Source: Flavobacterium macrobrachii (GTDB taxonomy: Bacteria; Bacteroidota; Bacteroidia; Flavobacteriales; Flavobacteriaceae). Taken from it: a DNA stretch of 45,035 nt. The translations under genes were made by a program, and so were the position numbers. The stretch covers positions 1 through 45,035 of the forward strand of contig NZ_JACTAC010000021.1 in the NCBI RefSeq assembly GCF_014486675.1, written 5' to 3'. Positions 15,343-43,084 of the stretch are shown in pieces; the first letter of the stretch is position 1, and the number at the start of each line of letters is the position of its first letter. The notes beneath the pieces are model-generated. The model was given only the letters and a program-made list of their open reading frames with translations. It made no database searches and was not told the DNA's origin.

Positions 15343-15370
15343 TAGACGCTAGTTAATTCTAATCCTGACA
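15343..15370 (-). promoter_or_regulatory. ECF-type promoter of the Oar receptor
   Basis: On the minus strand, TGTCAGGATT, 12 bases, then CGTCTA, 23 bases before the ATG at 15319. The same boxes with the same 12-base spacer occur at 17849, 36700 and 43057. The T-tract of the upstream terminator runs into the -35 side. Confidence 0.7.
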
Positions 15371-15373
15371 AAA

Positions 15374-15398
15374 AAAGCATCACAAAATGTGATGCTTT
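15374..15398 (-). terminator. Terminator of the OsmC-peroxiredoxin operon
   Basis: AAAGCATCACA (15374-15384), loop AAA, then the exact complement to 15398. It is followed in the minus direction by T residues, 31 bases after the peroxiredoxin stop codon. Confidence 0.85.
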
Positions 15399-15428
15399 AA
15401 AAAAACCAAACTTTAAAACAAACTAAAT

Positions 15429-16112
15429 TTATTTTGGTAAATGAGCTAAAATATCTTCAATAGTAGCTCTGTTTTTATAATTAGGATCAAATTGCTTGTA
15501 AACAATTTTTCCGCTTTTATCTATTATGAAAGTAGCTGGTACTGGCAAAACGCCTTCCTTATTTGCATTGGTTTCACTTATAGAAGCATTTAATTTCTCT
15601 TGAATCATATCTTGATATTCTTTTGTAACTTCAAATTTGACATCAAAAGCTTTCATAATACTTCCATCTAAATCCGATATAACAGTAAAATCTATTTTAT
15701 TATTTGCAATGGTTTTCGTTGAATTTTCATAACTCTCAGACGATATCGCAATGATTTTTGCTCCCGCATCTTCAATACTTTTTGCTTTTTCTGCAAATTC
15801 AGATAAATATTGATTGCATATTGGACACCAATACCCACGATAAAAAATGACTACTATAGGTTGCTTTTCATAGAAATCTTTTAGCGTTACCGTTTTGTTA
15901 TCACTTGTAGTCATGCTAACAACAGGTGCAACATCTCCAATTTGTAATCCTTTTGGAATGGCGTTGGTTTCCATACCTAAAGTGTTGTAATCAACCGAAA
16001 TTTCTTCTGTTACAGGCTCGGTTTCTACGGGTTCATTTTGAACTTCTTTTTTTACTTCTTGACAGCTATACAATAATACAATTGACAGCAATCCCAATAC
16101 TTCTTTTCTCAT
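15429..16112 (-). CDS. Lipoprotein peroxiredoxin-like (AhpC/TSA family) protein
   Basis: A 227-residue protein with a lipoprotein signal (lipobox LLYSC, Cys17), an acidic linker rich in Glu and Val (18-45), and a thioredoxin-fold AhpC/TSA domain. The redox motif is FYRGYWCPICNQ (Cys96 and Cys99), typical of the peroxiredoxin-like branch rather than classical 2-Cys peroxiredoxins. PATFIIDKSGKIVYKQFDPNY completes the fold. It is probably anchored in the periplasm as a thiol peroxidase or disulfide reductase. It is the last gene of the OsmC operon, 18 bases after the outer-membrane protein, and ends at a strong terminator. Confidence 0.85.
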   Translation of the reverse strand: MRKEVLGLLSIVLLYSCQEVKKEVQNEPVETEPVTEEISVDYNTLGMETNAIPKGLQIGDVAPVVSMTTSDNKTVTLKDFYEKQPIVVIFYRGYWCPICNQYLSEFAEKAKSIEDAGAKIIAISSESYENSTKTIANNKIDFTVISDLDGSIMKAFDVKFEVTKEYQDMIQEKLNASISETNANKEGVLPVPATFIIDKSGKIVYKQFDPNYKNRATIEDILAHLPK

Positions 16113-16130
16113 AATTTCTACTATTAAAGA

Positions 16131-16736
16131 TTATTTAATTTTATAATTTACAGATAATATTACGATTCCCATCCATCCTTCACCAACGTTTTCTCCGCGT
16201 GTAATTACATTTATTTCCCTACCAAATCCTAACGAACCTCCTGCATTCCATTTTTCACTTAAATCAAATAAATAGCCACCATTTATCCAAGGTTGAATGA
16301 CTAAATTATACGTTTGACCTTCTGTTGTATTGGACGTATTTAAGCCATCTTTCCAGTCTGTCCACATACTCCAGGTATCAACTGAAGCGCCAATTATAAA
16401 GTTTCCTTTACCATAAGGAAAATAACGAACTACTCCAATTGTTGCACCAAAACCAGAAGCAACTTCATTATCATTATACTCACTAAAATCTTGACGGTCT
16501 GCAAAGTTACCTCCAATTCTAAAACGTAAAGCCCATTTATCATTTAGAAAAACATTAGAGGTAATCATAGGCATTACTCCCGCAGGATACAATTGAAGCT
16601 CTGCTCCTATTTCAATCTTTTTTTCATGGTCTAAAGCAACTTCATTAACATCATTTTGTGCATGTGAGAATGATAAAAATAATAAACCAAAAAAGAGTAA
16701 AAGTTTTTTGAATGTTAAAAATGATTTTTTTTCCAT
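16131..16736 (-). CDS. Putative outer-membrane beta-barrel protein
   Basis: A 201-residue protein taken from the ATG at 16736, because this gives a proper signal peptide (MEKKSFLTFKKLLLFFGLLFLSFSHAQ). An upstream in-frame start would add 13 residues. The mature part has alternating hydrophobic and polar residues and Gly/Trp-rich strands (WALRFRIGGNFAD, ATIGVVRYFPYGKGNFIIGASVD, WNAGGSLGFGREI), ending VILSVNYKIK, as in small outer-membrane barrels. No specific family is recognised. It sits between thioredoxin and peroxiredoxin genes in one operon. Confidence 0.7.
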   Translation of the reverse strand: MEKKSFLTFKKLLLFFGLLFLSFSHAQNDVNEVALDHEKKIEIGAELQLYPAGVMPMITSNVFLNDKWALRFRIGGNFADRQDFSEYNDNEVASGFGATIGVVRYFPYGKGNFIIGASVDTWSMWTDWKDGLNTSNTTEGQTYNLVIQPWINGGYLFDLSEKWNAGGSLGFGREINVITRGENVGEGWMGIVILSVNYKIK

Positions 16737-16765
16737 GTTCAATAATTGTATAAAATGATTAAAAA

Positions 16766-16799
16766 CTAAAAGCATTAGTTAATTAACTAACGCTTTTAG
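16766..16799 (-). terminator. Intra-operon hairpin downstream of the thioredoxin gene
   Basis: CTAAAAGCATTAGTT and AACTAACGCTTTTAG pair over 15 positions with one mismatch around a four-base loop. It lies between the thioredoxin stop and the outer-membrane protein start, so it may attenuate or process the transcript rather than end it. Confidence 0.6.
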
Positions 16800-16839
16800 A
16801 ACAAACAGCAACTAATTTGAGGCAAAAAGGTCTATTTGA

Positions 16840-17280
16840 TTATGGAACAATTCTTTTTCCAAAATTTATTAAAATATATGGTTTTTGAAACCCTGTGGTT
16901 CTGGTTTTTACTTCTCCTTTACTATCTAAAATAAGTAAAGAGGGATAGGAACGAATATTATATTTTCTTATTAACTCTTGACCTTCTTGCGTTTCTCCAT
17001 CTATAGCAATATTAATAAAGTTAGCATTGAAATAGTTTCCAACCGCTTCATCTTTGAAAGTTGTTTTTTTAAGTTGTTTACAAGGCCCACACCAAGTAGC
17101 ATGCACATCAAGAAAAATAGGTTTATTAAGCTCTTGCGATTTTAATAAAGCTTGATGAAAATTTCCATCAAAAAATTCAATTCCTTTATTGCCTAAAGTC
17201 ACTTCAGCTTTTGGTTTTTTGAAACTATAAATTCCAAAAACTACGATGGCAATTATTCCAGTAAAAATTAATGTTTTCAT
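16840..17280 (-). CDS. Membrane-anchored thioredoxin-family protein
   Basis: A 146-residue protein from the ATG at 17280, chosen because it begins a clean membrane anchor or signal (MKTLIFTGIIAIVVFGIYSF). The thioredoxin fold carries ATWCGPCKQLKK with redox cysteines Cys64 and Cys67 and the cis-proline segment YNIRSYPSLLIL. It is probably exported and acts as a periplasmic disulfide reductase, perhaps a partner for the peroxiredoxin-like lipoprotein of the same operon. The 111-base gap to osmC holds only a doubtful 29-codon frame. Confidence 0.87.
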   Translation of the reverse strand: MKTLIFTGIIAIVVFGIYSFKKPKAEVTLGNKGIEFFDGNFHQALLKSQELNKPIFLDVHATWCGPCKQLKKTTFKDEAVGNYFNANFINIAIDGETQEGQELIRKYNIRSYPSLLILDSKGEVKTRTTGFQKPYILINFGKRIVP

Positions 17281-17391
17281 ATGTTTAAATTTTATTTTTA
17301 GCGGTAACATATGGTATCACCTTTTTTAATATAGGTGTTTGCTTTTGCAAACATTCTGTTAATGGTGATTTCATAGGTCTTTATTTTTAAT

Positions 17392-17817
17392 TTATACAAG
17401 TTCAACTTGATTTAAAATGGTGGCTTTTTCTATATTCCAATCCCCTTCAATCATTCTATGAACATAACAAGCATCAGCTTGATTTAACAATTCGGTTTTC
17501 TGTTCTTCTGTTATATTACCTTCAATGGAAATAGCAACTTTAATGGTGGTTAAAAGCTTTCCGTTTTCGCCTCTTTTTACCACTTGGTCTAATTCCGCAT
17601 CCACGTTACCTATTTCCCAATTATTTCTTCGAGCAATGAAACGAACAGTTGCTACTTTACACATAGCAATACTAGATAAAATTAAGTCGATTGGTGAAAA
17701 ACCTAAATCGGTTCCTTTACTTGTAATAGGCTCATCTCCTAAAATACTATGTCTTCCATTACTAATGATAGTTTGATATCCCGTAGGCAAATTTTTAATT
17801 TTAATGTTTGTCGGCAT
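17392..17817 (-). CDS. OsmC family thiol peroxidase
   Basis: A 141-residue OsmC/Ohr-fold protein with the two expected peroxidatic and resolving cysteines, Cys53 (SIAMCKVATVRF) and Cys117 (QADACYVHRMIEG). The catalytic arginine is probably in RRNNWEIG. The family reduces organic hydroperoxides with cytosolic thiols. It is the first gene of the OsmC - thioredoxin - OMP - peroxiredoxin operon, with an ECF-like promoter 31 bases before its ATG. The same promoter type is seen before the arsenosugar operons, which suggests that organic peroxide or arsenic-thiol stress is the signal. Confidence 0.88.
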   Translation of the reverse strand: MPTNIKIKNLPTGYQTIISNGRHSILGDEPITSKGTDLGFSPIDLILSSIAMCKVATVRFIARRNNWEIGNVDAELDQVVKRGENGKLLTTIKVAISIEGNITEEQKTELLNQADACYVHRMIEGDWNIEKATILNQVELV

Positions 17818-17848
17818 TTTATTTCTTTTTAATTAACAATTTATAGTT

Positions 17849-17876
17849 TAGACGAAACAATTAGTAAATCCTGACA
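17849..17876 (-). promoter_or_regulatory. ECF-type promoter of the OsmC operon
   Basis: On the minus strand, TGTCAGGATT, 12 bases, then CGTCTA followed by AA, 31 bases before the ATG of osmC. It is identical in box sequence to the promoter of the Oar receptor. Confidence 0.7.
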
Positions 17877-18339
17877 AAATATTTTTGACAAAACTTAAAA
17901 TCTTTTAAATGAGTTTCTCAATTATATTTTGAGTTAAAAATTTTATAACCACTTACATTTAATTCAAAAACGCCCTTTAAAACAAAATAAATATCTGATG
18001 TTTCTCCAAAATCACCCCAAAATAATCAAGGAGTTTAAAAATATTGTTTTCTGTTTTTTTAATAATTGAAAAAAGAATACTTGTATCATTCAATAGTTTG
18101 TCTAATTTTAAATAGTGTAAATATTATTCTCTTAATCTTATAAATAATGATGTATTATTTTTTTAAAAAAACTTTTCAGTACATTTAAAAAAATAAATTA
18201 GCTCGTCTTGTTGAATCTTTTCTTATTAATTAAATTAAATACAATTCTACACAAATCTTTATCAATTATTCCTTTTAATTTTATTCTGACAAATAGTTTG
18301 CTTTAGTTTGTGAATGATAACATTCAAAAAACAAATAAA
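17877..18339. other. AT-rich intergenic region between divergent OsmC and AhpD-like operons
   Basis: About 460 bases without a convincing ORF. It carries the OsmC promoter at its left edge. A single TGTCAG-like half (CTGACA at 18286) lacks a matching -10 box. No clear Bacteroidota promoter could be picked for the rightward gene. Confidence 0.5.
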
Positions 18340-18939
18340 ATGCTTAATCCACTTGTAAGTCCTCTTGAAAATCCTAATGATGCAGAGCTTCAAAAATTAA
18401 TTACCTTTTATAATGAAACATTAGGATTTTGCCCTAATAGTATAAAAACAATGTTTCGTAGACCTGAAATTGCATATGCTTTTATTAATTTGAACAAAGC
18501 GGTTATGGATAATAAAGGTAATGTTACCAGTGATTTAAAAAGGTTTATTGGATTCATTTCTAGTCATCAAGCAGGTTGCCGTTATTGTCAAGCTCACACA
18601 ATAAGAGCTGCAGAGCGATATGATGCCGCTCAAGAAAAGTTAGAAAATATTTGGGAGTTTCAAACTCACCCTGCTTTTTCAGAAGCTGAGAGAGTTGCTT
18701 TGGAATTCGCTTTAAAAAGCTCAGCAATTCCAAATCAAGTAGATGATGAAATTGCTACTAAAATGCGTTTATATTGGACAGATGATGAAATTGTTGAAAT
18801 TTTAGGAGTTGTCGCTTTATTCGGATTTTTGAACCGCTGGAACGATAGCATGGGTACACCAATAGAGGAAGGAGCAAACGAAAGCGGTTTGATTTATTTA
18901 GAGTCCAAAGGTTGGAATGCTGGAAAGCATACTTACTAA
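18340..18939 (+). CDS. Carboxymuconolactone decarboxylase/AhpD-fold protein
   Basis: A 199-residue all-helical protein from the ATG at 18340 (a GTG ten codons upstream is less likely). The AhpD core has SSHQAGCRYCQAHTIRAAE with the redox C-x2-C pair and the nearby histidine. The N-terminal LGFCPNSIKTMFRRPEIAYAF matches the peroxidase-related long form of the family. Expected activity is thiol-dependent peroxide reduction or carbonyl chemistry in the cytosol. It is followed by an AraC regulator and a second AhpD-like gene, all on the plus strand. Confidence 0.85.
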   Translation: MLNPLVSPLENPNDAELQKLITFYNETLGFCPNSIKTMFRRPEIAYAFINLNKAVMDNKGNVTSDLKRFIGFISSHQAGCRYCQAHTIRAAERYDAAQEKLENIWEFQTHPAFSEAERVALEFALKSSAIPNQVDDEIATKMRLYWTDDEIVEILGVVALFGFLNRWNDSMGTPIEEGANESGLIYLESKGWNAGKHTY

Positions 18940-19010
18940 CCATTATAATTTATTCATTTTTGAATATTAGCAACTAAAAATTACAATCATTATTAAATTC
19001 CATTTAAATT

Positions 19011-19832: not shown

Positions 19833-19937
19833 CAAAAGGGAAAAATTACCTACTTATCGGGCAAAGTTACCTAACATTACCCTTTTTTATTGCCACATCT
19901 TTGCATTGTTAAATTAATAATCATAAAATTATAAACA

Positions 19938-20474: not shown

Positions 20475-20518
20475 TCTTTAACTATTCATAAATTAATAAC
20501 ATTTAAAATTAAATCAAA

Positions 20519-20917: not shown

Positions 20918-20948
20918 TTACAGTTTGTTTACAAAAAAACAGCGTATT

Positions 20949-20983
20949 AAAAAGAGATTTTCTATAACAGAGAATCTCTTTTT
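20949..20983. terminator. Bidirectional terminator, cupredoxin versus LysE-like gene
   Basis: AAAAAGAGATTTTCT and AGAGAATCTCTTTTT pair over 15 positions with one T-G wobble, with A and T tracts on the two sides. The hairpin overlaps the last codons of the convergent minus-strand gene. Confidence 0.8.
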
Positions 20984-21645: not shown

Positions 21646-21705
21646 TTTGTGAGCGGTTGAGTGAGACTGTTTTTAAGTTTTCAGTAGTTTACATCTTTTT
21701 CACTA

Positions 21706-21972
21706 CTATTTGAAATTGCTTTTTAAAGTAGAAATAATTGCTGCTTTTTTCTCTTCAGATAAAACAGTTGTTTCTTCATTTGAAGTTGAAAGTGAATTTT
21801 CAATAATGTCGTTTTGGTACTGATAGTTATGGCACGCTTTGCAAATCAATTTATGATATTCCAATATAAACTGTTCTTTTTTAGTGCGTTCCGATGGATT
21901 AATACTGATAATGGCAGATACTCTTTTGCAAGAATATAACAAATAAGGTAAAATTTTTCTAAGATTTATCAT
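21706..21972 (-). CDS. Zinc-binding anti-sigma factor-like protein
   Basis: An 88-residue protein. The start is the ATG at 21972, whose ATGA overlaps the stop of the sigma gene, so translation is coupled. An upstream in-frame start would add 18 residues out of frame with the sigma gene and is less likely. It has C-x(26)-H-x3-C-x2-C (YSCKRV, then YHKLICKACHNY), the pattern of ZAS-domain anti-sigma factors. No membrane span is visible, so it would be cytosolic, and thiol oxidation or arsenic binding to the zinc site is a possible release signal (inference). Confidence 0.72.
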   Translation of the reverse strand: MINLRKILPYLLYSCKRVSAIISINPSERTKKEQFILEYHKLICKACHNYQYQNDIIENSLSTSNEETTVLSEEKKAAIISTLKSNFK

Positions 21973-33610: not shown

Positions 33611-34333
33611 TTAATTATCCAGACTAATTTTTTTTATAGAAGTATTATTATTGTAATCGGTAAAATAAAGAAAATAAATACCGCTATCTAAATGCGTTAA
33701 ATCTAAACTTGTTTTAGATTTAAAAGTTTCATTTATTTCAACAACTTTTTGACCTAATGATGAATATATTTGAAATAACTTTATTTCGGTAGATTCATCA
33801 ATGTCTATCGAAATAATACCTTTAGATGGATTGGGATACAATTTGATATTGTGGGCAGAAAAGGATGCAGTAGATAGAGTGGTACAATTAGAAGCCGTAA
33901 ATGGCATAAAACTTCCAAAGTCCCAAAAAGCATTAAACTGTTGGCAATAAAAATAAATTGTATTGAAATTAGAGATATTGAATCCGTTGGGAATTGTTTG
34001 TGTAAAACTAGCCACACCATTTCCAGTAACTAATCCCATTTCAATTCTAGGGCGCGATAAAAAATTATTGGTTATTCTCAGCTGGGCATTTGTAAGTGTT
34101 CCTCTATCAACTAAAAAAATCCGAACATCAGGACCAGACGCAGTAGAAAAATTGCTGCCTAAATTTACTGTAACAGTATTGTTTTCATTTAGTACTACTG
34201 AAACCATTCCTGAAACATTATAACTTGGAATACTAGTATTGTTTCCAAAACCTGTTCCGTTAGCAGTGCATTGTGCCTTTGCTGAAGCAAAACAAAGTAA
34301 GCCAAAGACATAAAGTAAAATTTTCTTTTTCAT
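33611..34333 (-). CDS. DM13-domain protein with type IX secretion signal
   Basis: A 240-residue secreted protein with signal peptide MKKKILLYVFGLLCFASAKAQ. Residues about 22-145 resemble a DM13 domain (VSGMVSVVLNENNTVTVNLG, then SGPDVRIFLVDRG and FNTIYFYCQQFNAFW). The C-terminal 75 residues are a type A T9SS sorting domain (LYPNPSKGIISIDI, LGQKVVEI, LDSGIYFLYF). DM13 has been proposed to bind haem-like redox groups and contains a conserved Cys, here in YFYCQQF. It should be exported to the cell surface. Confidence 0.82.
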   Translation of the reverse strand: MKKKILLYVFGLLCFASAKAQCTANGTGFGNNTSIPSYNVSGMVSVVLNENNTVTVNLGSNFSTASGPDVRIFLVDRGTLTNAQLRITNNFLSRPRIEMGLVTGNGVASFTQTIPNGFNISNFNTIYFYCQQFNAFWDFGSFMPFTASNCTTLSTASFSAHNIKLYPNPSKGIISIDIDESTEIKLFQIYSSLGQKVVEINETFKSKTSLDLTHLDSGIYFLYFTDYNNNTSIKKISLDN

Positions 34334-34394
34334 AACATTTTATTTATACAAAGTTATAAAAATCAAATAATTATAATTATACAATTTTTCCTGA

Positions 34395-35234
34395 TTAATT
34401 GTCAATTGTTCTGTTTTTGTCTCTAAATTCTGTTGGAGATTGCCCTTCTTTATTTTTGAAAAATCGACTAAAGGAAGTAACATCTTCAAATCCCAATTCA
34501 AAAGCGATTTCTTTCACAATTTTTTGGGTAAATAACAATTGTCTTTTAGCTTCTATATGAATTCTATCTTGTATCACTTTTAGTGGTGTTTTTTCTGAGT
34601 GCAAAGTAAAAAGATTAGTCAACGACTTTGCTGGTTTATTCATTAAATTAGCATATTCAAAAACGGTGTGCATTTTTTTATAATGCATTTCAACCAATAA
34701 ATTAAATTCTCTAATTGTATCTAATTTGTTAACATGAAGTCTTAATGATTTGTTTTGTTTTTTATAGATTCGGGTAGAAAGAATTAAAAAACGTTTCAAG
34801 AGCATCAACAACATTTGACCGTGTAAATTGTCTCGCGATTCAAACTCGCTTAGGAATACCATCCAAAGTAATTTGAATTTAGGTAATTGTAATTCATCCA
34901 AATCAATAACTGGAATCTTTTCATTGGCAAAGAATAGCACACCATTGCAACCAATTTCTTTATCAAAAAACTCAGAACTGTAAAATTCTCTGTTAAAACG
35001 GATTAGGTTAATTTCATCCATTTTTGAAATGACAATATCATGCATGTCAGTTAAAAACAAAATTTGATTAAGTAACAAGGGATATTCTACGCCATCAATA
35101 ATTAATGTTGTGTCTCTTTGATCATTCCAAAAAATACGCAAGTAATCTCCTTTATATTGATTTAACCAAACTGCATCCTCTTTTTTGATGGTTGCAATAT
35201 GAAAATACTCATTTAATGAACCTTTGTATTCCAT
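34395..35234 (-). CDS. AraC-family regulator of the arsenosugar cluster
   Basis: A 279-residue paralog of the AraC protein at 19011. Both share the layout of sensor domain, KRFLILSTRIYKKQ linker and tandem helix-turn-helix (TVFEYANLMNKPAKSLTNLF, IVKEIAFELGFEDVTSFSRF). The start is immediately after the upstream glycosyltransferase stop, so it is in the DUF547-GT operon, which carries an ECF-like promoter. Autoregulation or control of the ArsS operon is inferred. The sensor segment EIGCNGVLFFA retains the cysteine of the paralog's EVGCKGILFFG, a possible ligand or arsenic site. Confidence 0.88.
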   Translation of the reverse strand: MEYKGSLNEYFHIATIKKEDAVWLNQYKGDYLRIFWNDQRDTTLIIDGVEYPLLLNQILFLTDMHDIVISKMDEINLIRFNREFYSSEFFDKEIGCNGVLFFANEKIPVIDLDELQLPKFKLLWMVFLSEFESRDNLHGQMLLMLLKRFLILSTRIYKKQNKSLRLHVNKLDTIREFNLLVEMHYKKMHTVFEYANLMNKPAKSLTNLFTLHSEKTPLKVIQDRIHIEAKRQLLFTQKIVKEIAFELGFEDVTSFSRFFKNKEGQSPTEFRDKNRTIDN

Positions 35235-35927
35235 TTAACTAATTTTTTTTTTATAATAATTTAACATGCTTTCATTAGAATGCCCTAGCTTTTGCTTTAA
35301 ATGAATTACTGTAAAGTGATATTGTAACTTCCAAGCACCATTAATTCGATACCTTCTAGCTGAAGTAATGAGATATTTTGGAATAACTACAAATTGTTTT
35401 TCTTGATAGAGTCGCTTGATAATTTCATTGTCTTCATAAATAATATAGCTTTCATTAAAACCATTAATTTTATCAAATAAATGCTTAGCTACAAATAAAG
35501 ATTGATCCCCACCTCGACATGAAATATGATTAAATCTTGTAAACCACTGAGAAACTAAAAGTACAGGATGATTGTAATCAAATTTCATACGAAAGCAACC
35601 TGCTAAATTACCTTTATCAACTTGTTTTATTATTTCTAAATCAAAATCTGTAGGTGGAAAACTATCACAATGCAAAAAATACAAAATAGAACCTTTAGCA
35701 ATTTTTGCTCCAGCATTCATTTGTTTTGCTCTTCCCTTTTCTGTCTGAACCAAAATGACATTTTTGATACCTTGAACGAGATTTTGAGAACCATCTGAAC
35801 TACCACCATCTACTACAATAACTTCATATGAATAGGTCTTTGAAATCGTTTTTTCTATATGCAACAAAAGCCGATGTATGGCATCGACTTCATTGAGAAT
35901 TGGAATTATTATAGAAACTTTAATCAT
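35235..35927 (-). CDS. Arsenosugar-biosynthesis-type GT2 glycosyltransferase (TIGR04283-like)
   Basis: A 230-residue GT2-fold enzyme. It has VSIIIPILNEVDAIHRLL, VIVVDGGSSDGSQNLV, GRAKQMNAGAKIAKGSILYFLHCDS (DxD-like site with Cys), AGCFRMKFDYNH and RGGDQSLFVAKHLFDKINGF. This set is characteristic of the family NCBI names TIGR04283 family arsenosugar biosynthesis glycosyltransferase. It overlaps the DUF547 gene by eight bases. In arsenosugar pathways it is thought to add or exchange the aglycone-side unit; the substrate is inferred. Confidence 0.88.
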   Translation of the reverse strand: MIKVSIIIPILNEVDAIHRLLLHIEKTISKTYSYEVIVVDGGSSDGSQNLVQGIKNVILVQTEKGRAKQMNAGAKIAKGSILYFLHCDSFPPTDFDLEIIKQVDKGNLAGCFRMKFDYNHPVLLVSQWFTRFNHISCRGGDQSLFVAKHLFDKINGFNESYIIYEDNEIIKRLYQEKQFVVIPKYLITSARRYRINGAWKLQYHFTVIHLKQKLGHSNESMLNYYKKKIS

Positions 35928-36675
35928 TTAAACTCCAGTTATACTCTTTATATTTAACCTTAGCATTCTTATTAATCTTAACAGCACTGTATTGATTCAA
36001 ATAATCGATAACAGTTCCTTTTGTTTTAAAATCTCCCGAAAACCAATCAAATATTTTTGATATTTCAATATTATTAGCAGTAATTGTGTTTTTAGTTTTA
36101 TCATTTATAAATGCTTTTGCTCCAGCCTCTAATTGACTTTCTAATTTAGCTTCTGTATAAGCTTGATTTGATAAATTTGGACAAGAGAAAGAAGCACAGT
36201 TTATCGCAAAATGAATTCTTGGTTCGTTCATTTTTCTCAATATTTCATGCTCAATTTCTTCTAAACTATATTTTTTTGTTCCTAAAGTGAAAAACTTTTT
36301 ACCCCAAGGATCTTTAATATCTTTTATACTTTTTAAAGGATAATTATCTAAAATAAGTTTTACTGTATAGGCATTATAGGCATTTATCCAATAAGCTAAA
36401 ATCGCATTTCGAGACCATGATTTTTGAGGTACATTTGCGGCTAATTCATCCAAATAAACTTGTAATGCTTTTGCATCTTTCTTAAATCCTTTGTAATCTA
36501 CATTCCCTTTATCTGTAACATATTTTTGCAATAGCACATGCCACTTTTGATGATCTATTACTTTAATTGAATTTTGATTTTCTACTGCATAAGCCCATTC
36601 TGGAATGCTATTTTCGTTTGAATTTGCACACGATAAAAAAGGCAATAAGGCTATTATAAAAATTATTTTTCTCAT
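35920..36675 (-). CDS. DUF547-domain lipoprotein
   Basis: A 251-residue protein with a lipoprotein signal (lipobox FLSC, Cys16). The DUF547 core is present (WINAYNAYTVKLILDNYPLKS, YSLEEIEHEILRK, RIHFAINCASFSCPNLS, IFDWFSGDF). It is the first gene of an operon with the arsenosugar-type GT2 and AraC. The other DUF547 protein (30276) keeps the same CxxxxC arrangement. Periplasmic lipoprotein location suggests a late step or transport of the product, but no activity is established for the family. Confidence 0.85.
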   Translation of the reverse strand: MRKIIFIIALLPFLSCANSNENSIPEWAYAVENQNSIKVIDHQKWHVLLQKYVTDKGNVDYKGFKKDAKALQVYLDELAANVPQKSWSRNAILAYWINAYNAYTVKLILDNYPLKSIKDIKDPWGKKFFTLGTKKYSLEEIEHEILRKMNEPRIHFAINCASFSCPNLSNQAYTEAKLESQLEAGAKAFINDKTKNTITANNIEISKIFDWFSGDFKTKGTVIDYLNQYSAVKINKNAKVKYKEYNWSLND

Positions 36676-36699: not shown

Positions 36700-36727
36700 T
36701 AGTCGAAACTTTTACGAATTCCTGACA
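36700..36727 (-). promoter_or_regulatory. ECF-type promoter of the DUF547-GT-AraC operon
   Basis: On the minus strand, TGTCAGGAAT, 12 bases, then CGACTA, 24 bases before the ATG at 36675. It lies right after the sterol-desaturase stop, so readthrough from the ArsS operon is also possible. Confidence 0.7.
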
Positions 36728-36729: not shown

Positions 36730-37602
36730 CTATTTTTTAAAAGGATAAAGTTCTTGTTGCAAAAAGTCTTGAGGAAATTCATCTTCATCTGAAAAACCTA
36801 ATTCTATATCTCTTCCATCGCTCGGTATATGATGGGTTTTAAATATATAATCCCAAACACTCAAAGAAATACCAAAATTTGCCCCATACTTAGAAGGTAA
36901 TATTTTGCTATGATGCCAAATGTGCATTTTAGGATTATTGAAAATATATTTTAAAACACCGTAATCCCAACCAATATTAGCATGATTCAAATGACCAATA
37001 GTAATGGCAATAAAATGCACAACAAACACATCTTCAAGAGCAAAACCACCAATTAATATTAATGGAATATATTGTATGGATTTGTACACTACTGCTTCCA
37101 TCCAATTATAACGAAACTGAGTGGCAAAACCCATTTGCTTAGGAGAATGGTGCGTTTTGTGAATGTTCCATAAAAAAGGAATGCGATGCAGCAAGCGATG
37201 TATATTCCATTGTACAAAATCACTCAATACAAAAAACAAAAGCAATCCAAATGGTTTTGGCAATTCTGATAAAGAAAACAATTGAATTGAAGTCAATTGA
37301 AGATCAAAAAGACTTAAAAAATCATTAAATAATGCTTCTGTAACGTTGGATAATGCAATCAGTAAAAGTAAATTCAATAAGAAAAAATTGAAAAACATAT
37401 AAAACAAATCCAACCAAAAATCTTTACGAAATATCGGTTGATTTTTTCTCCATGGAAATACAATTTCTAACAACCAAACACCTAAGGAAATAAATAATAA
37501 ACCATAGAAATAATTATCCCATTTCCAAAATAAAATTTCGGATTTTAAGTAGTTAAAATAACCACTGTATGAATTGGTAATAAGTTCTATATACTGATTC
37601 AT
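36730..37602 (-). CDS. Sterol desaturase-family (fatty acid hydroxylase) membrane protein
   Basis: A 290-residue protein from the ATG at 37602, six bases past the upstream stop (an alternative start would overlap that gene). Four or more membrane segments carry the family histidine boxes: HRLLHR, then NIHKTHHS, HLNHANIGWDYG, and HIWHHSK. These bind a di-iron centre for O2-dependent hydroxylation or desaturation of lipids. As last gene of the ArsS operon it may modify a lipid part of an arsenolipid, which is inference. Confidence 0.85.
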   Translation of the reverse strand: MNQYIELITNSYSGYFNYLKSEILFWKWDNYFYGLLFISLGVWLLEIVFPWRKNQPIFRKDFWLDLFYMFFNFFLLNLLLLIALSNVTEALFNDFLSLFDLQLTSIQLFSLSELPKPFGLLLFFVLSDFVQWNIHRLLHRIPFLWNIHKTHHSPKQMGFATQFRYNWMEAVVYKSIQYIPLILIGGFALEDVFVVHFIAITIGHLNHANIGWDYGVLKYIFNNPKMHIWHHSKILPSKYGANFGISLSVWDYIFKTHHIPSDGRDIELGFSDEDEFPQDFLQQELYPFKK

Positions 37603-37607
37603 TTTTG

Positions 37608-38714
37608 TTATAATTTGAAAGTATAAAAAATAAAACCACTTATAATAGCAGCAATTGGCAAAGTTAAAACCCAAGAAGTCACTATCTTTAAAATAGTTTT
37701 ATAATCGGCCGATTGATTAACTAATCCAATTCCAAAAATTGACCCAACAGAAACATGTGTTGTTGAAACTGGAAGTCCATTAAAACTTGCTGTAGAAACT
37801 AATAAACTTGTAATTAAATTTGCTGTAAAACCTTGTCCAAAATTCATTGCAGATATTTTATTACTCATTGTATTTGCAACTTTTTTTGCGTTTAAAATTC
37901 CACCAATCGCCATTACTAATGCTATCGCAAAAAGGGACCAATTTGAATTAACCGAAGTTATGATTAGTAATATTCCAGCAATTTTTGGAGTATCATTTAA
38001 CCCTCTTGCAAATCCAACTGCTCCAGCGCTTATAAAATGAAAAAAATTGACAATTTTCTGACTTGAAACACCTAAAATTCGATTTGAATAGGTTTCTGAT
38101 ACCGAAGTGCAACTTGAAATCGTTAATGAACTTTCAATTTTTACATCTGAGACAAAACTATTACAGTTAATTTTAGCGTAACTGTCTTCAATTAAACATA
38201 AACAACTTTCCTTTTTTATTCCAAGTTTTTTTCGTGTTGTAGAAAATAAATAATATAAAACTACAGCGCATAATGAAGCTAACAAAGGACTTGTTAGTAA
38301 CGGAACAATAAAAGCGTCAGTAAGTTTTTTAAAATTAAACTCATTGCCTACAGCCATAAAACCAACTCCAAATAAACTTCCCACCAATGCATGAGTAGTT
38401 GAAACTGGCATTCCACTCTTCGTTGCTATAAAAATTGTTAAAGCCGCACCAATAGCAATTGAAATGGGAAAAATAGGGTTTAATAACAATACATCGGGTA
38501 CCAATCCTTTTCCGGAAAAATTTTTCAATAAACTTTTAGCTAAAAAAATTGAACAAATAGAACCCGAAATCGTTGTTGTTGTAGCCCAAAAAAGTGCTTT
38601 TTTATATGATACTGTTTTACTGCTATACAATGTTGCCACACCTTTGAAATTGTCATTTGCACCATTATTAAAAGCTAGAAAAAGAACCGCTAAAATTAAA
38701 ATTAGATTAATCAT
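37608..38714 (-). CDS. PiT-family inorganic phosphate transporter
   Basis: A 368-residue polytopic transporter with the duplicated PiT signature: NNGANDNFKGVATLY near the N-terminus and FARGLNDTPKIAGILL in the second half, each followed by GMPVSTTHALVG or GLPVSTTHVSVG. PiT proteins take up metal-phosphate with H+ or Na+. Arsenate also enters by Pit-type carriers in other bacteria. Its place in an ArsM/ArsS operon may secure phosphate under arsenate stress, or supply arsenate. Both readings are inference. Confidence 0.9.
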   Translation of the reverse strand: MINLILILAVLFLAFNNGANDNFKGVATLYSSKTVSYKKALFWATTTTISGSICSIFLAKSLLKNFSGKGLVPDVLLLNPIFPISIAIGAALTIFIATKSGMPVSTTHALVGSLFGVGFMAVGNEFNFKKLTDAFIVPLLTSPLLASLCAVVLYYLFSTTRKKLGIKKESCLCLIEDSYAKINCNSFVSDVKIESSLTISSCTSVSETYSNRILGVSSQKIVNFFHFISAGAVGFARGLNDTPKIAGILLIITSVNSNWSLFAIALVMAIGGILNAKKVANTMSNKISAMNFGQGFTANLITSLLVSTASFNGLPVSTTHVSVGSIFGIGLVNQSADYKTILKIVTSWVLTLPIAAIISGFIFYTFKL

Positions 38715-38732
38715 TTAAAAATTGATTAAGTT

Positions 38733-39701
38733 TTAACAACAACCTCCTCCGTTGTAATGATAGGTACTTTCGCTGATAAAAATATCTTTTCTATTCAATG
38801 AAGCTATAGCAGCAGCCGTTTTATCACAAATGGCTAATGGCTGATTTTTCATTAAAATATGACCATTCTTATCATCAAAATAATCTTCCTTTCCATAATA
38901 AATGGCAGCTTTACCTGTAAAAACACATGGACCATCTGCTGGCATTGGATCTTTTATGGCACAAACTTCTATACTTTCAATATAAATTAACGCTTCAGTG
39001 GGATAGTTCTCTGTATCTAATATTCTATAGGGGCGTCTGCCTCTTATTTCAATAGTACCAAAACCAACATCTGTTAACGCTTTAATATAATCAGCAATGG
39101 GAATACTACCACTTAAACATAAAGCTCGTAAATGGTCATCATTTCGTAAAGTTTCATTCATTTCTTGTTCACATGTTGGGTCACTCATAACCAAACGTCC
39201 GTGAGGTTTTAAAACACGATACATTTCTTCTAATGCTTTTTTTAAGTCCTCAGCCTTAAAAATATTAAAAAGACAGTTTTGTGCAGCAACATCAATACTT
39301 TCATTTTCAATAGGTAAATTCAATGCATCTCCTTTTCTCAACTCAACAAATTCACTTTTAAACCATTCATTTTCTTGTTCGGCAATTAAAAAATTCTTTC
39401 GAGAGGCTTCTAACATTTCATCCACCACATCGACACCTATAACTCCTGCTTTCTGTCTCGAAAAATAAGAGAATTGTAGCAATTCCATACCTCCGCCAAC
39501 ACCCACATATAAAATCTTCGGATTATTAATTAAATCTTGTGCCGAAATAGTGCTACCACAACCATAATTCATTTCCTGCATAATTTTTGGAATTTCTAAT
39601 CCCGGAAATTTCCAAATAGGTGTTGTGGTACAGCATAAACCAACATCGGGTGTTAATGCAGCATTTTTATATAAATCGTTTGTAGCGTCTAAATAACTCA
39701 T
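38733..39701 (-). CDS. arsM: Arsenite S-adenosylmethionine methyltransferase ArsM (arsenosugar type)
   Basis: A 322-residue class I methyltransferase of the arsenosugar-biosynthesis ArsM family. The SAM site is ILYVGVGGGMELLQFS (about 63-78). Candidate As(III)-binding cysteines are Cys23-Cys24 (GLCCTTT), Cys48 (NYGCGST) and the terminal GGGCC (Cys321-322). NCLFNIFKAEDLKKALEEMYRVLKP and RLVMSDP are further family motifs. It methylates arsenite to mono- and dimethylarsenicals, the substrate of ArsS. It is tightly packed between PNP and the PiT transporter. Confidence 0.9.
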   Translation of the reverse strand: MSYLDATNDLYKNAALTPDVGLCCTTTPIWKFPGLEIPKIMQEMNYGCGSTISAQDLINNPKILYVGVGGGMELLQFSYFSRQKAGVIGVDVVDEMLEASRKNFLIAEQENEWFKSEFVELRKGDALNLPIENESIDVAAQNCLFNIFKAEDLKKALEEMYRVLKPHGRLVMSDPTCEQEMNETLRNDDHLRALCLSGSIPIADYIKALTDVGFGTIEIRGRRPYRILDTENYPTEALIYIESIEVCAIKDPMPADGPCVFTGKAAIYYGKEDYFDDKNGHILMKNQPLAICDKTAAAIASLNRKDIFISESTYHYNGGGCC

Positions 39702-39713
39702 AGTGGTATTGTT

Positions 39714-40529
39714 TTAAATATTTTTAATTAATGCTTTAAATAGTGTAATCATTTTAGGTTCTGCTTCTCCAGCAATGGCTATAATGTCAGGAATGTTTAC
39801 TGGTTTTAAATCATCAGGATTACACTCATCAGTTAATACAGAAACAGCTAAAACTGGTAATTGCAAATGATTTGCCACTATTACTTCTGGAACTGTACTC
39901 ATGCCTACTGCATCAGCTCCAATAATTTTTAAGTAGCGATATTCAGCCTTGGTTTCTAATTGTGGACCAACAACGGCAGCATAAACTCCTTTGTGTAAAG
40001 TAATATTCTGATTTTTAGCAATTTCAACAATCGAATGACGTAAATTCAAATTATAAGGTTCGCTCATATCGGTAAAGCGTTCGCCAAACTCGGAAACATT
40101 TGCAAATGCCAATGGTGAACCTCCTTGTAAATTGATATGGTCTTCAATAAGCATTAAATCTCCTTTTTTGAAGTCTAAATTTATGGCTCCAGCGGCGTTT
40201 GAAATTAGTAATTTTTGAATGCCCAATGCTCTTAAAACTCGAATGGAAAATGTAATTTCTTGCAAAGAATACCCTTCATATAAATGAAATCGTCCTTGCA
40301 TTACAACTATTTTTTTATTTTCAAATGTTCCAAAAATCAATTTACCAGAATGAAATTCAACTGTCGAAACTGGAAAATTTGGAATATCAGCATAATTTAT
40401 TTCACATTCGATAGTTAAATGATTCACTAATTGTCCAAGCCCAGTGCCTAATACAATACCAATTTCTGGATGGAGAAACCCTTTTTCTTTAAGAAAACTT
40501 GTAGTGATGTCTATTGTTTTTGCATTCAT
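39714..40529 (-). CDS. Purine nucleoside phosphorylase
   Basis: A 271-residue PNP of the trimeric family: IGIVLGTGLGQLV, VEFHSGKLIFG, GRFHLYEGYS (phosphate site), LLISNAAGAINLDFKKGDLM, GPQLETKAEYRYLKIIGADAVGMSTVPEV (base/ribose site), then SVLTDECNPD. It phosphorolyses purine nucleosides. In this operon the likely substrate is the adenosyl arsenical formed by ArsS, giving adenine and a sugar-1-phosphate arsenical. That role is inference from position. It is preceded by only two bases of spacing. Confidence 0.88.
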   Translation of the reverse strand: MNAKTIDITTSFLKEKGFLHPEIGIVLGTGLGQLVNHLTIECEINYADIPNFPVSTVEFHSGKLIFGTFENKKIVVMQGRFHLYEGYSLQEITFSIRVLRALGIQKLLISNAAGAINLDFKKGDLMLIEDHINLQGGSPLAFANVSEFGERFTDMSEPYNLNLRHSIVEIAKNQNITLHKGVYAAVVGPQLETKAEYRYLKIIGADAVGMSTVPEVIVANHLQLPVLAVSVLTDECNPDDLKPVNIPDIIAIAGEAEPKMITLFKALIKNI

Positions 40530-40531
40530 TT

Positions 40532-41131
40532 CTATAAATATTTTTGAAATTCAGGAATGTTTTTAATGTCTTCGATAGTGTCAATATCATTCTTCATTTT
40601 TATAAATGCTGTTTGAATATGCGATAAATTAGTTAAGGTATCTGCTAAAACACTGTTAGTGCCCCAATTTTTATTTTCGAATATACCATTCGGAATTGAC
40701 TTTAAACCCAAAAGATAATAACCACCATCTTCAGCTGGACCAATAACTACTTCATTTGTATCTAATAACAAAAAAGCATCTTCAATATCTTTTGAATCAA
40801 GCGTTGGCAAATCAGAACCTACAATAACAATTTTATTGAAGCCATCTTCAAATCCTTTTTCAAAAGCATGCTGCATTCGCATTCCTAAATCGGTTCCTTG
40901 CTGAATGTCTTTCTCAAATGTGGTATTATCCCAAATATCATGTAAAGTAATGGCTTCAGAATATAATACACGTTTAGTGGCATTGACTTGTGAGATGCAA
41001 TTTTTAGTGTGTGTTAATAAATACACATAAACTTCAAGAGCATTTTTTTCGCCAATAGTTGCTGCTAATCTGGTTTTTACTTTTCCTAATTCAGGATTTC
41101 TAGTAAAAACTAAAACTAATTTCTTTTCCAT
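40532..41131 (-). CDS. Arsenosugar-biosynthesis CofC-like transferase (TIGR04282-like)
   Basis: A 199-residue MobA/CofC-like NTP-transferase-fold protein, started at the ATG at 41131, which gives a two-base gap to the ArsS stop. Motifs are FTRNPELGKVKTRLAA, GMRMQHAFEKGF, VIVGSDLPTL, GPAEDGGYYLLGL and NKNWGTNSVL. This is the family NCBI labels TIGR04282 arsenosugar biosynthesis glycosyltransferase. A nucleotidyltransfer to the arsenosugar phosphate made by the PNP would be chemically reasonable, but the activity is not demonstrated. Confidence 0.87.
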   Translation of the reverse strand: MEKKLVLVFTRNPELGKVKTRLAATIGEKNALEVYVYLLTHTKNCISQVNATKRVLYSEAITLHDIWDNTTFEKDIQQGTDLGMRMQHAFEKGFEDGFNKIVIVGSDLPTLDSKDIEDAFLLLDTNEVVIGPAEDGGYYLLGLKSIPNGIFENKNWGTNSVLADTLTNLSHIQTAFIKMKNDIDTIEDIKNIPEFQKYL

Positions 41132-41133
41132 GA

Positions 41134-42189
41134 TTATGCTACCGTACCTTGACAACTACTTCCTGATCCTGCGGTGCACCCATAACAATGTTGAGAAATT
41201 ACAATGTCACGATCACTTAATGATGCCTCATTATATTCCGAAATATGCTGCTCTTTTGAGGCTACTTTTAAGCCTAACATTTGGTTGAAATCACAGTCAT
41301 ATAAATAACCATCCCAACTAACAGAAATGGTATTGGTACACATCACATTACCAACGGCTTTTGGATTAAATGCTTCTACTAAAGCATTCATATAATCTTC
41401 ATAATTATCTGATGCTATTAAGTAATCTAAAAATCTACTAATTGGAATATTCGTAATGGCAAATAGATTATTAAAATCGATATCAAAATCTTCTTTTAAA
41501 GCTTTCTTGAAATCTTTTTCAAGTGCCATTTGATCTGTTGGAAGAAATGCTCCAGAAGGATTATATACTAAATCTAATTTAAGTGGACTTCCTTCTTTTC
41601 CATAACCAACATCATTAAGCATTTGTAATGCTTTGATTGATTTATCAAAAACACCATCACCTCTTTGCTTATCTGTTTTTTCCCTCTTATAAAAGGGTAA
41701 AGATGAAATAACATGAATATTATGTTTAGCAAAAAACTCAGGTAAGTCATGATATTTTTTATTCGCTAAAATAATGGTTAGATTAGAACGTACTATAAAA
41801 TCTTTTACGCCTAATTTAGAAGCTTCTTCAACAAACCAACGAAGATTAGGATTCATTTCAGGAGCACCTCCAGTTAAATCTAATGTATTGACAGAAGTTG
41901 TTTTTAATACATCCAAAATGTGCTCCATGGTTTCGATAGTCATAATTTCTTTCCTATCTGGACCAGCATCTACATGACAATGTGCACAAACTTGATTACA
42001 CATGTAACCTACATTAATTTGTAAAATCTCAATTTTATTTGGGCGTAAAGGAAATTGGTCAATTCCTTTAAGTTTATTGGCAAAAGTGGGTAAAGATCCG
42101 TCTTTAAAAAAACCATTAGATAAAATTTCTAATTGTTTTTCCGTTTTTGAAAGCTCACTTTTTTTTGCTTGTAATGATTTTGCTAACAT
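41134..42189 (-). CDS. arsS: Arsenosugar biosynthesis radical-SAM protein ArsS
   Basis: A 351-residue radical-SAM enzyme. The [4Fe-4S] motif is C-x3-C-x2-C (YMCNQVCAHCHVD, Cys64, Cys68, Cys71), followed by TLDLTGGAPEMN and RSNLTI. A C-terminal cysteine-rich domain has MCTNTISVSW, LYDCDFNQM and a closing CYGCTAGSGSSCQG (Cys335, Cys338, Cys346). ArsS couples a 5'-deoxyadenosyl group to dimethylarsenite on the way to arsenosugars. Some relatives contain selenocysteine in the C-terminal motif; this one has only Cys there and no in-frame TGA. It is third in its operon. Confidence 0.92.
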   Translation of the reverse strand: MLAKSLQAKKSELSKTEKQLEILSNGFFKDGSLPTFANKLKGIDQFPLRPNKIEILQINVGYMCNQVCAHCHVDAGPDRKEIMTIETMEHILDVLKTTSVNTLDLTGGAPEMNPNLRWFVEEASKLGVKDFIVRSNLTIILANKKYHDLPEFFAKHNIHVISSLPFYKREKTDKQRGDGVFDKSIKALQMLNDVGYGKEGSPLKLDLVYNPSGAFLPTDQMALEKDFKKALKEDFDIDFNNLFAITNIPISRFLDYLIASDNYEDYMNALVEAFNPKAVGNVMCTNTISVSWDGYLYDCDFNQMLGLKVASKEQHISEYNEASLSDRDIVISQHCYGCTAGSGSSCQGTVA

Positions 42190-42203
42190 TCACTCTAATT
42201 AAA

Positions 42204-42539
42204 TTACATTGATAATTTGTCATACTTGTTCATCATTTGGACACCATGCACTAAAGAAGCACCTCCTCTAATGGCTGCCGCTACATGTAAAGCTTCCATC
42301 ATTTCCTCTTTAGTAATTCCTCTTTTCAAACCATCTCCTGTGTAAGCATCAATGCAATAAGGACATTGAACGGTATGAGCAACTGCCAATGCAATTAATG
42401 ATTTTTCTCTTGCTTTTAAACTTCCTTCTTCAAAAACTTTCCCATAGTATTCGAAGAATTTTGAACCTAATTCCTCATTCCATTCTGATATTTTTCCAAA
42501 TTTTTTCAAATCTGATGGATCGTAGTACGTTTTTTCCAT
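42204..42539 (-). CDS. Arsenosugar-associated AhpD-like (peroxidase-like) protein
   Basis: A 111-residue AhpD/CMD-fold protein: KAREKSLIALAVAHTVQCPYCIDAYTGDGLKRGITKEE, with C-x2-C (Cys59, Cys62), then AIRGGASLVHGVQM. It is the short form NCBI calls arsenosugar biosynthesis-associated peroxidase-like protein. It is placed between rhodanese and ArsS, and the gaps are 11 and 14 bases. A role in handling thiol-bound arsenic or peroxides is inferred. It is the third AhpD-fold protein in the window. Confidence 0.88.
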   Translation of the reverse strand: MEKTYYDPSDLKKFGKISEWNEELGSKFFEYYGKVFEEGSLKAREKSLIALAVAHTVQCPYCIDAYTGDGLKRGITKEEMMEALHVAAAIRGGASLVHGVQMMNKYDKLSM

Positions 42540-42550
42540 GATGCTATATA

Positions 42551-43036
42551 TTAATAAGTTTGAATTCCTTTTTTTAGATATTTACTCCATTCTTTACTAT
42601 ACGTATGTACATATTCTGTCTCTTGCTCTGAATGATTAAATACTTTATAACCATTATTTTTCCATTCAAAAATGCCTCCATAAAGATTAAAAACATTAGA
42701 ATAGCCTAACTTCAATAATTTTTCTCCAATTTTTTCACTTCTTACACCAATAGAACAATAAACTATAATTGTTGTATTCTTATCTTTTATTTCTTCTAAA
42801 ACTAATTTTTGATTGAACTTGTTATAACCTACATGTATAGCTCCCTTAATATGGCTCGTATTATATTCAATCAATTCTCTTGCATCTAAAAAGACTACAG
42901 GTGACTTAATCGAAGCTTGTTTAACATTTATATACGAAACACGCTCTGAATTGTATTTTTTTAATACTTCAGGAATAGTTTTCTGACCATAAATTACAGT
43001 AGAAAAAAGGAAAAGAATAAGGAAGAAATGTCGCAT
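42551..43036 (-). CDS. Exported rhodanese-domain protein
   Basis: A 161-residue protein from the ATG at 43036, because it starts a signal peptide (MRHFFLILFLFSTVIYGQ). A start 11 codons upstream would overlap the promoter. The rhodanese domain has FLDARELIEYNTSHIKGAIHVGY and IIVYCSIGVRSEKIGEKL, with active Cys94 and the CxxxxRS loop of sulfurtransferases and of arsenate/Cdc25-like phosphatases, then LYGGIFEWKNNGY. It is the promoter-proximal gene of the ArsS operon. It could deliver sulfur for thio-arsenicals or reduce arsenate, both inference. Confidence 0.87.
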   Translation of the reverse strand: MRHFFLILFLFSTVIYGQKTIPEVLKKYNSERVSYINVKQASIKSPVVFLDARELIEYNTSHIKGAIHVGYNKFNQKLVLEEIKDKNTTIIVYCSIGVRSEKIGEKLLKLGYSNVFNLYGGIFEWKNNGYKVFNHSEQETEYVHTYSKEWSKYLKKGIQTY

Positions 43037-43056
43037 AATTACATTTTTATCTAATT

Positions 43057-43084
43057 TAGACGAAAACATTTTGAATTCCTGACA
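43057..43084 (-). promoter_or_regulatory. ECF-type promoter of the ArsS/ArsM operon
   Basis: On the minus strand, TGTCAGGAAT, 12 bases, then CGTCTA followed by AA, 20 bases before the ATG of the rhodanese gene. The same boxes and spacer are seen at three other promoters in the window. Confidence 0.7.

What the first reader, a model, noticed from the sequence alone, without database searches (positions are those of the whole stretch)
15343..43084. Four promoters with identical architecture define a candidate ECF sigma regulon
Directly seen: TGTCAGGAWT, exactly 12 bases, CGWCTA, at 15370-15343, 17876-17849, 36727-36700 and 43084-43057 on the minus strand, each 20-31 bases before a start codon. 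Other matches to the first box (for example in PNP and the lipoprotein) lack the second box. Measured from TGTCAG the spacer is 16, and CGTC is a common ECF -10. The four units are an Oar receptor, an OsmC/thioredoxin/peroxiredoxin operon, a DUF547-GT-AraC operon and the ArsS/ArsM operon. The shared promoter ties uptake, thiol-redox defence and arsenosugar synthesis into one proposed circuit, which I have not seen described.
Basis: partly seen in the sequence, partly recalled or inferred. Interest (0 to 1): 0.78.

Follow-up and report, generated by a model that had tools for sequence, protein, structure and literature searches.

The report
Sigma gene carrying its own off-switch
Five copies of one short DNA pattern, all inside one 28-kilobase stretch of a bacterial genome and one of them inside a sigma-factor gene, are likely switches by which that sigma factor would turn on arsenic-sugar and thiol-defence genes and, from within its own gene, its own predicted inhibitor.

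Summary
All five lie in this window; the rest of the 3.45 Mb genome has no exact copy. The motif matches the published consensus of Neisseria sigmaE, and the sigma gene, followed by a short C..HxxxCxxC anti-sigma-like gene, is a distant relative of that system. The regulon is supported comparatively: matching sites precede DUF547, OsmC, rhodanese, arsenosugar AhpD, MsrA and thioredoxin genes in other genomes with this sigma. The intragenic site is held at DNA level: two of its positions rank first and second among 559 and 546 codon-bias tests in two sigma clades, while no site lies within 400 nt upstream of 56 sigma genes. So the sigma probably induces its anti-sigma rather than itself. In Flavobacteriaceae a related promoter precedes the arsenosugar operon in 35 of 65 genomes with a paralogous sigma and 0 of 19 loci without it. 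The cluster was recently shared between Flavobacterium species. Transcription itself is untested.

The parts
15343..15370 (-). predicted ECF promoter of the Oar-like TonB receptor gene (23 bases before ATG)
   Evidence: exact motif; sequence; also exact in F. aurantiibacter
17849..17876 (-). predicted ECF promoter of the OsmC/thioredoxin/OMP/peroxiredoxin unit (31 bases before ATG)
   Evidence: exact motif; exact in F. aurantiibacter and before a 78%-identical OsmC gene in L082
22031..22058 (-). fifth, intragenic predicted ECF promoter inside the sigma gene (codons 155-164), 58 bases before the anti-sigma ATG
   Evidence: exact motif; codon-level constraint in two sigma clades
36700..36727 (-). 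predicted ECF promoter of the DUF547/GT/AraC/DM13 unit (24 bases before ATG)
   Evidence: exact motif; same site before DUF547 orthologues in L015, L017 and L010
43057..43084 (-). predicted ECF promoter of the arsenosugar operon (20 bases before the rhodanese ATG at 43036)
   Evidence: exact motif; same site before a 54%-identical rhodanese gene in L085
21969..22520 (-). ECF sigma factor (region 2 and region 4)
   Evidence: Pfam Sigma70_r2 2.9e-17; Sigma70_r4_2 25.2 bits, just under its 25.7 cut-off; TIGR02937 over cut-off
21706..21972 (-). short anti-sigma-like protein, 88 aa, C..HxxxCxxC; ATG overlaps the sigma stop
   Evidence: NCBIfam antisigmaE 1.7e-5, below cut-off; motif; no Pfam hit
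12203..15319 (-). Oar-like TonB-dependent outer-membrane receptor
   Evidence: Pfam PF25183, PF13620
15429..17817 (-). OsmC (17392-17817), thioredoxin (16840-17310), OMP-like without family hit (16131-16775), peroxiredoxin (15429-16112)
   Evidence: Pfam
33611..36675 (-). DUF547 (35920-36675), TIGR04283 glycosyltransferase (35235-35927), AraC (34395-35234), DM13/T9SS protein (33611-34333)
   Evidence: Pfam and NCBIfam
36730..43036 (-). arsenosugar operon: rhodanese, AhpD-like TIGR04169, ArsS, TIGR04282, PNP, ArsM, Pit-type transporter, fatty-acid hydroxylase
   Evidence: Pfam and NCBIfam

Best explanation
The five copies of TGTCAGGAWT-N12-CGWCTA are likely promoters read by the ECF sigma factor encoded at 22520-21969, a relative of Neisseria sigmaE, and the copy inside the sigma gene is predicted to drive the anti-sigma gene that follows. 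Proposed working: the cysteine-bearing anti-sigma would hold the sigma until a thiol-reactive stress (oxidant, copper or arsenite; inferred) releases it. The freed sigma would then switch on the receptor, OsmC/thioredoxin/peroxiredoxin, DUF547 and arsenosugar units. From the promoter in its own region-4 codons it would also make more anti-sigma without making more sigma, a negative feedback loop. Shown: the sites, their uniqueness in the genome, their positions before orthologous genes elsewhere, the codon-level constraint on the intragenic copy, the adjacent C..HxxxCxxC gene. Inferred: that this sigma reads them, that the intragenic site starts an anti-sigma transcript, and the inducing signal. 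The cluster with sigma and sites was recently exchanged between Flavobacterium species, so it behaves like a portable, self-regulated module (inferred).
For: Five exact sites in 27.7 kb, none elsewhere in 3.45 Mb. Match to the Neisseria sigmaE consensus (passages). F. aurantiibacter carries all five sites, F. cyanobacteriorum three, with 100%/99% identical sigma. In other genomes with this sigma, sites precede orthologues of window targets: DUF547 (L015, L017), OsmC (L082), rhodanese (L085), arsenosugar AhpD (L084, L015), and MsrA and thioredoxin. Of the three single exact hits among 397 family genomes, one (G247) lies 45 nt before a DUF547 orthologue, 53% identical. Intragenic site: matched at up to 3 mismatches in 28 of 31 homologous loci; third-base G at site codon 8 in 26 of 27 genes (5.9 expected) although eight different amino acids occur there, and at codon 2 in 25 of 28 (11.3 expected), ranks 1 and 2 of 559; in an independent sigma clade 25 of 25 (3.2 expected) and 14 of 15 (2.8 expected), ranks 1 and 2 of 546. 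C..HxxxCxxC gene next to 31 of 31 and 25 of 25 sigma genes. No site within 400 nt upstream of any of 56 sigma genes. Arsenosugar operon: TGTWA-N17-CGWC in 35 of 65 genomes with the paralogous sigma, 0 of 19 loci without.
Against: No transcript, binding or mutant data. At one mismatch the loosened pattern gives 101 matches in 29 genomes against 64 for the reversed control (my sums), so many single one-mismatch hits are chance. Strict TGTNA-N17-CGWC occurs in region-4 codons of only 14 of 31 window-type sigma genes (24 of 25 in the other clade); L034 and L036 lack the element. Only 4 of 11 ArsS-bearing genomes with this sigma have a window-like site (at most one mismatch) before the arsenosugar operon. 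In 20 family genomes the exact form TGTMAGGA-N14-CGTCNAA was found only inside the sigma gene (10 genomes), never elsewhere, so the paralogous clade's targets use a looser sequence. Sigma-negative genomes are often small, so phylogeny may confound the arsenosugar comparison.
Confidence: 0.72

Rival explanations
1. Only the four intergenic copies are promoters. The intragenic match is a by-product of the conserved protein motif C-Q/K-E-L-x-I-T-x-S-N of region 4.
For: The amino acids around the site are conserved (S163, N164, W166 invariant in 23 sequences), so part of the DNA match is forced by the protein; N. gonorrhoeae keeps ACG TCC at the -10 half without a -35 half.
Against: The most constrained positions are synonymous third bases, and at codon 8 the amino acid varies (A L P Q R S T V M) while the third base stays G. 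Four proteobacterial homologues with a related region 4 lack the full site.
Confidence: 0.13
2. The intragenic promoter is real but its main product is a 3'-end small RNA or a transcript for the membrane protein gene further down (21645-20962), not anti-sigma mRNA.
For: Escherichia coli sigmaE makes MicL from a promoter inside cutC (PMC8103513, passage seen); Neisseria sigmaE makes a small RNA (PMC3240639, passages seen).
Against: The anti-sigma-like gene follows directly in 56 of 56 sigma genes examined; no Rfam RNA was found there.
Confidence: 0.1
3. The five sites are read by another sigma factor or a transcription factor of the host, and the nearby sigma gene is a bystander.
For: No direct binding data; host genomes hold other ECF sigma genes (31 first-look candidates in G000).
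Against: The sites match the consensus of this sigma type, occur nowhere else exactly in the genome, recur in genomes with this sigma, and sit inside the sigma gene itself.
Confidence: 0.08
4. The sites are repeats left by a mobile element, not promoters.
For: The cluster was recently exchanged and, in F. aurantiibacter, abuts multi-copy inverted repeats.
Against: Only the two boxes are shared; the 12-base spacers differ at every site, and the repeats are a different sequence absent from this genome.
Confidence: 0.02

Closest known systems
Neisseria meningitidis sigmaE (NMB2144) with anti-sigma MseR (NMB2145)
   Same: Promoter boxes and spacing (-35 GTMAGBWTT, 12-13 nt, -10 CGTCTAAH); short anti-sigma with HxxxCxxC and an N-terminal Cys directly downstream; very small regulon; MsrA among targets (in relatives of the window sigma). 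Source: PMC2893595, passages.
   Different: 33.5% identity over residues 30-183 to the N. gonorrhoeae homologue. The Neisseria operon is driven from its front and autoregulated; here no site lies within 400 nt upstream of the sigma gene and one lies inside it. Targets are arsenosugar, OsmC, DUF547 and Oar units.
Haemophilus influenzae RpoE2 with HrsE
   Same: ECF sigma with a 67-aa anti-sigma gene, msrAB target, hypochlorite response (PMC7907618, passages).
   Different: No intragenic promoter is mentioned in the passages seen; weak self-activation only from an 865-bp upstream fragment.
Typical autoregulated ECF operons
   Same: Sigma and anti-sigma genes adjacent.
   Different: A review names positive autoregulation as a common hallmark and gives about 55% of ECFs as autoregulated (PMC8103513, passages); here the only nearby site would raise the anti-sigma alone.
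Escherichia coli sigmaE promoter of micL inside cutC
   Same: An ECF promoter inside a coding sequence (passage).
   Different: It lies in an unrelated gene and makes a small RNA; here it lies in the sigma gene and precedes the anti-sigma gene.

Membership tests
ECF sigma factor | regions sigma2 and sigma4 only | tested here: met
   Sigma70_r2 2.9e-17; Sigma70_r4_2 25.2 bits against a cut-off of 25.7, so narrowly under; TIGR02937 sigma70-ECF 71.5 over cut-off 42.9
Neisseria sigmaE-type system | short anti-sigma with HxxxCxxC directly downstream | tested here: met
   31 of 31 window-type and 25 of 25 paralogous sigma genes
Neisseria sigmaE-type system | promoter GTMAGBWTT-N12-13-CGTCTAAH | tested here: met
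   window sites TGTCAGGAWT-N12-CGWCTA against the consensus in PMC2893595
Neisseria sigmaE-type system | MsrA/B in the regulon | tested here: inconclusive
   not among the window's five units; one-mismatch sites 93-228 nt before MsrA genes in three relatives
Neisseria sigmaE-type system | operon autoregulated from a promoter in front of it | tested here: not met
   0 of 56 sigma genes with TGTNA-N16..18-CGWC within 400 nt upstream; promoters further away not excluded
Neisseria sigmaE-type system | same ECF group by phylogeny | not tested
   only a 33.5% tblastn match; no tree built, so I say it works like this system and do not file it in the same group
Anti-sigma factor | binds and inhibits the sigma | not testable with these tools
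   NCBIfam antisigmaE 24.5 bits, below its cut-off of 50
Arsenosugar biosynthesis cluster | ArsS and arsenosugar-type ArsM | tested here: met
   TIGR04167 448.8 bits (cut-off 300), NF038099 566.1 bits (cut-off 400)

The most novel reading that the evidence does not exclude
In Bacteroidota, ECF sigma genes of the Neisseria-sigmaE type carry, in the codons of their own DNA-reading helix-turn-helix, the very promoter that the sigma reads. The sigma thereby turns on its inhibitor and never itself, and the same sigma family is the general regulator of bacterial arsenosugar synthesis. A protein's DNA-reading domain and the DNA it reads would be one and the same stretch of sequence, kept so across a phylum.
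Probability: 0.5. Interest if true: 0.86.

Novelty: new variant of a known kind. Interest (0 to 1): 0.72.

Why it matters
If right, it gives arsenosugar synthesis, common in Flavobacteriaceae (ArsS over cut-off in 148 of 199 genomes), a regulator that can be tested at once. It also shows an unusual feedback design: the promoter of the inhibitor is embedded in the coding sequence of the activator's DNA-binding domain, so coding and regulatory constraints fall on the same bases. Regulon predictors that look only in front of sigma operons would miss it. It also shows that a cluster can move between species together with its own sigma factor and matching promoters.

Tried and rejected
Family-wide search for the exact motif: 4 of 397 genomes, so the exact string is not a family-wide feature. 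Loosened motif at one mismatch in 29 sigma-bearing genomes: 101 matches against 64 for the reversed control, too loose for a genome-wide regulon list (my sums). A conserved one-mismatch hit in four genomes (L093, L094, L097, L099) lies inside a coding sequence before a DsbD-like protein (named by eye) and was set aside. Searching 20 family genomes for further exact sites found only the intragenic one. A window-like site before ArsS in sigma-bearing genomes: 4 of 11 only. Rfam: only a tRNA in the window. The EGKCG-rich small protein before which a site lies in L024 had no NCBIfam or Pfam match. Ten paper searches listed nothing that describes an intragenic sigma promoter for an anti-sigma gene or an ECF sigma for arsenosugar genes; subscription papers are mostly not held.

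Rows dropped before counts. One search left out L011 and L012 (near-identical to the window) and L022 (same genome as L019); L041 held only a 28-residue match. One search left out L158 (in-frame TAG, not read through). In one search one sigma-positive locus without a site (L174) fell outside my range; it is counted in the 35 of 65. L244 had no AhpD hit and is not counted. The 19 sigma-negative loci come from 18 genomes; two (L219, L226) have shortened upstream sequence. TGTWA-N17-CGWC was fixed after batches 1 and 2 had been seen; only batch 3 (12 of 20) was read after it was fixed. Sigma-negative status was read from absence in the match table (E <= 1e-25).
Full report
What is there. TGTCAGGAWT-N12-CGWCTA occurs five times in the window, all exact, all on the minus strand: 43084-43057, 36727-36700, 22058-22031, 17876-17849 and 15370-15343. 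None of 100 dinucleotide shuffles reached five matches even at three mismatches. The whole genome (3.45 Mb, 234 contigs) has no further exact copy and only two more at two mismatches, as many as the reversed control. Four sites lie 20-31 bases before a start codon. The fifth lies in codons 155-164 of the ECF sigma gene 22520-21969, inside the stretch matched by the region-4 profile (residues 125-175), and 58 bases before the ATG of a short gene whose start overlaps the sigma stop.

What reads them. The sigma has regions 2 and 4. The next gene encodes 88 residues with the C..HxxxCxxC pattern and a weak match to an anti-sigma model. In the Neisseria meningitidis sigmaE system the anti-sigma MseR has the same HxxxCxxC with an N-terminal cysteine, and the promoter consensus is -35 GTMAGBWTT, -10 CGTCTAAH, spacer 12-13, with the start six bases after the -10 motif (PMC2893595, passages seen). 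The window motif fits that consensus. The window sigma matches the N. gonorrhoeae homologue at 33.5% identity. That this sigma reads these sites is therefore a strong inference, not a measurement.

Comparative support for the regulon. Thirty-one loci in named genomes encode relatives of the sigma. F. aurantiibacter has all five sites and F. cyanobacteriorum three, at exact match. In more distant genomes with this sigma, sites precede orthologues of the window's targets: DUF547 (L015 exact, 25 nt; L017 one mismatch, 30 nt; 62% identity), OsmC (L082 exact, 33 nt, 78%), rhodanese (L085 exact, 19 nt, 54%), arsenosugar AhpD (L084 one mismatch, 31 nt; L015 one mismatch, 188 nt), an AraC gene (L078 exact, 50 nt), thioredoxin (L026 exact, 57 nt) and MsrA (L014, L015, L017, one mismatch, 93-228 nt). 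In 397 genomes of the family only four have an exact match, and one of the three single ones lies 45 nt before a DUF547 orthologue. The limit of this evidence: with the loosened pattern at one mismatch, 29 genomes give 101 matches against 64 for the reversed control (my sums), so single one-mismatch sites without an orthologous target mean little.

The intragenic promoter. In 28 of the 31 loci the site inside the sigma gene matches at up to three mismatches. Because the protein motif is conserved, I tested the bases that the protein does not fix. Over 28 sigma genes and 559 column-by-base tests, the strongest bias in the gene is third-base G at site codon 8 (26 of 27, 5.9 expected), although that residue is A, L, P, Q, R, S, T or V; the second strongest is third-base G at site codon 2 (25 of 28, 11.3 expected). 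A search of 397 family genomes found a broader sigma clade in 315; its 25 best usable members repeat the result independently: 25 of 25 (3.2 expected) and 14 of 15 (2.8 expected), again ranks one and two, of 546 tests. Strict TGTNA-N17-CGWC is present at this place in 24 of 25 of that clade and 14 of 31 window-type genes. Four proteobacterial homologues do not have the full site. Within 400 nt upstream of the sigma start none of the 56 genes has a site. A C..HxxxCxxC gene follows in 56 of 56. The simplest reading is an intragenic promoter that supplies anti-sigma, giving negative feedback. A review calls positive autoregulation a hallmark of ECF systems (PMC8103513, passages). A small-RNA product is the main alternative for the output.

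Arsenosugar control across the family. ArsS over the curated cut-off occurs in 148 of 199 family genomes. Upstream of the AhpD-ArsS pair, TGTWA-N17-CGWC is found in 12 of 25 loci of batch 1 (12 of 24, plus one locus outside the range), 11 of 20 of batch 2 and, after the pattern was fixed, 12 of 20 of batch 3, all from genomes with the broader sigma; in genomes without it, 0 of 19 loci. The shuffle rate is 0.0014; the reversed control gave 0 of 20 and 0 of 19; Fisher p is 4.5e-5 for batch 3. The hits read TGTWA(A)G/C T..T - CGACT, the same type of promoter. Against this, only 4 of 11 ArsS-bearing genomes with the window-type sigma have a window-like site before that operon, and sigma-negative genomes are often small, so shared descent may explain part of the difference.

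A travelling module. Window 12080-43085 is covered by pieces of F. aurantiibacter and F. cyanobacteriorum contigs at 90.7-99.5% identity (most pieces 96.6% or more), while rpoB-region identity is 81.3% and 78.9%. So sigma, anti-sigma, sites and targets were exchanged recently. F. cyanobacteriorum shows no OsmC or Oar site. In F. aurantiibacter the two outer ends abut a 39-nt inverted repeat present in 30 copies there and 33 in F. cyanobacteriorum, but absent from this genome. Two further genomes placed in the window's genus lack both the sigma and, for the one searched, ArsS (G127).

Verdict. The promoter type is known from Neisseria; the new parts are the intragenic, coding-sequence-embedded site, the absence of a nearby self-activating site, and the link to arsenosugar synthesis. 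Ten searches of the held literature listed no description of these.

Noticed in passing
window 12080 and 43085; L072, L073: The shared cluster ends here; in F. aurantiibacter both outer ends abut a 39-nt inverted repeat found 30 times in that genome, 33 times in F. cyanobacteriorum and not in this genome. The sigma block L012 has its own 44-nt inverted ends.
   Followed up: partly
window 37608-38714: A Pit-type phosphate transporter gene sits in the arsenosugar operon here; the matching pieces of both near-identical relatives skip it.
   Followed up: no
window 43090-44260: Contains short pieces repeated on several other contigs of the genome at 74-86% identity.
   Followed up: no
family genomes: Sigma and ArsS genes lie 30-63 kb apart in 11 of 22 same-contig pairs that I picked out by eye from the two lists.
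   Followed up: no
L024 10887-11318, L033 after 3160: A site precedes a small secreted protein with EGKCG repeats, like known metal-binding peptides by eye; no NCBIfam or Pfam match for the L024 copy.
   Followed up: partly
L161, L162, L163: Plasmid-borne proteobacterial homologues of the sigma lie beside DUF692, DUF2282, DoxX or MsrPQ genes and, in two of three, a zf-HC2 gene.
   Followed up: no
L134 (G252): This sigma has T instead of S at the -10 codon, giving CGAC instead of CGTC, still within the CGWC consensus.
   Followed up: no
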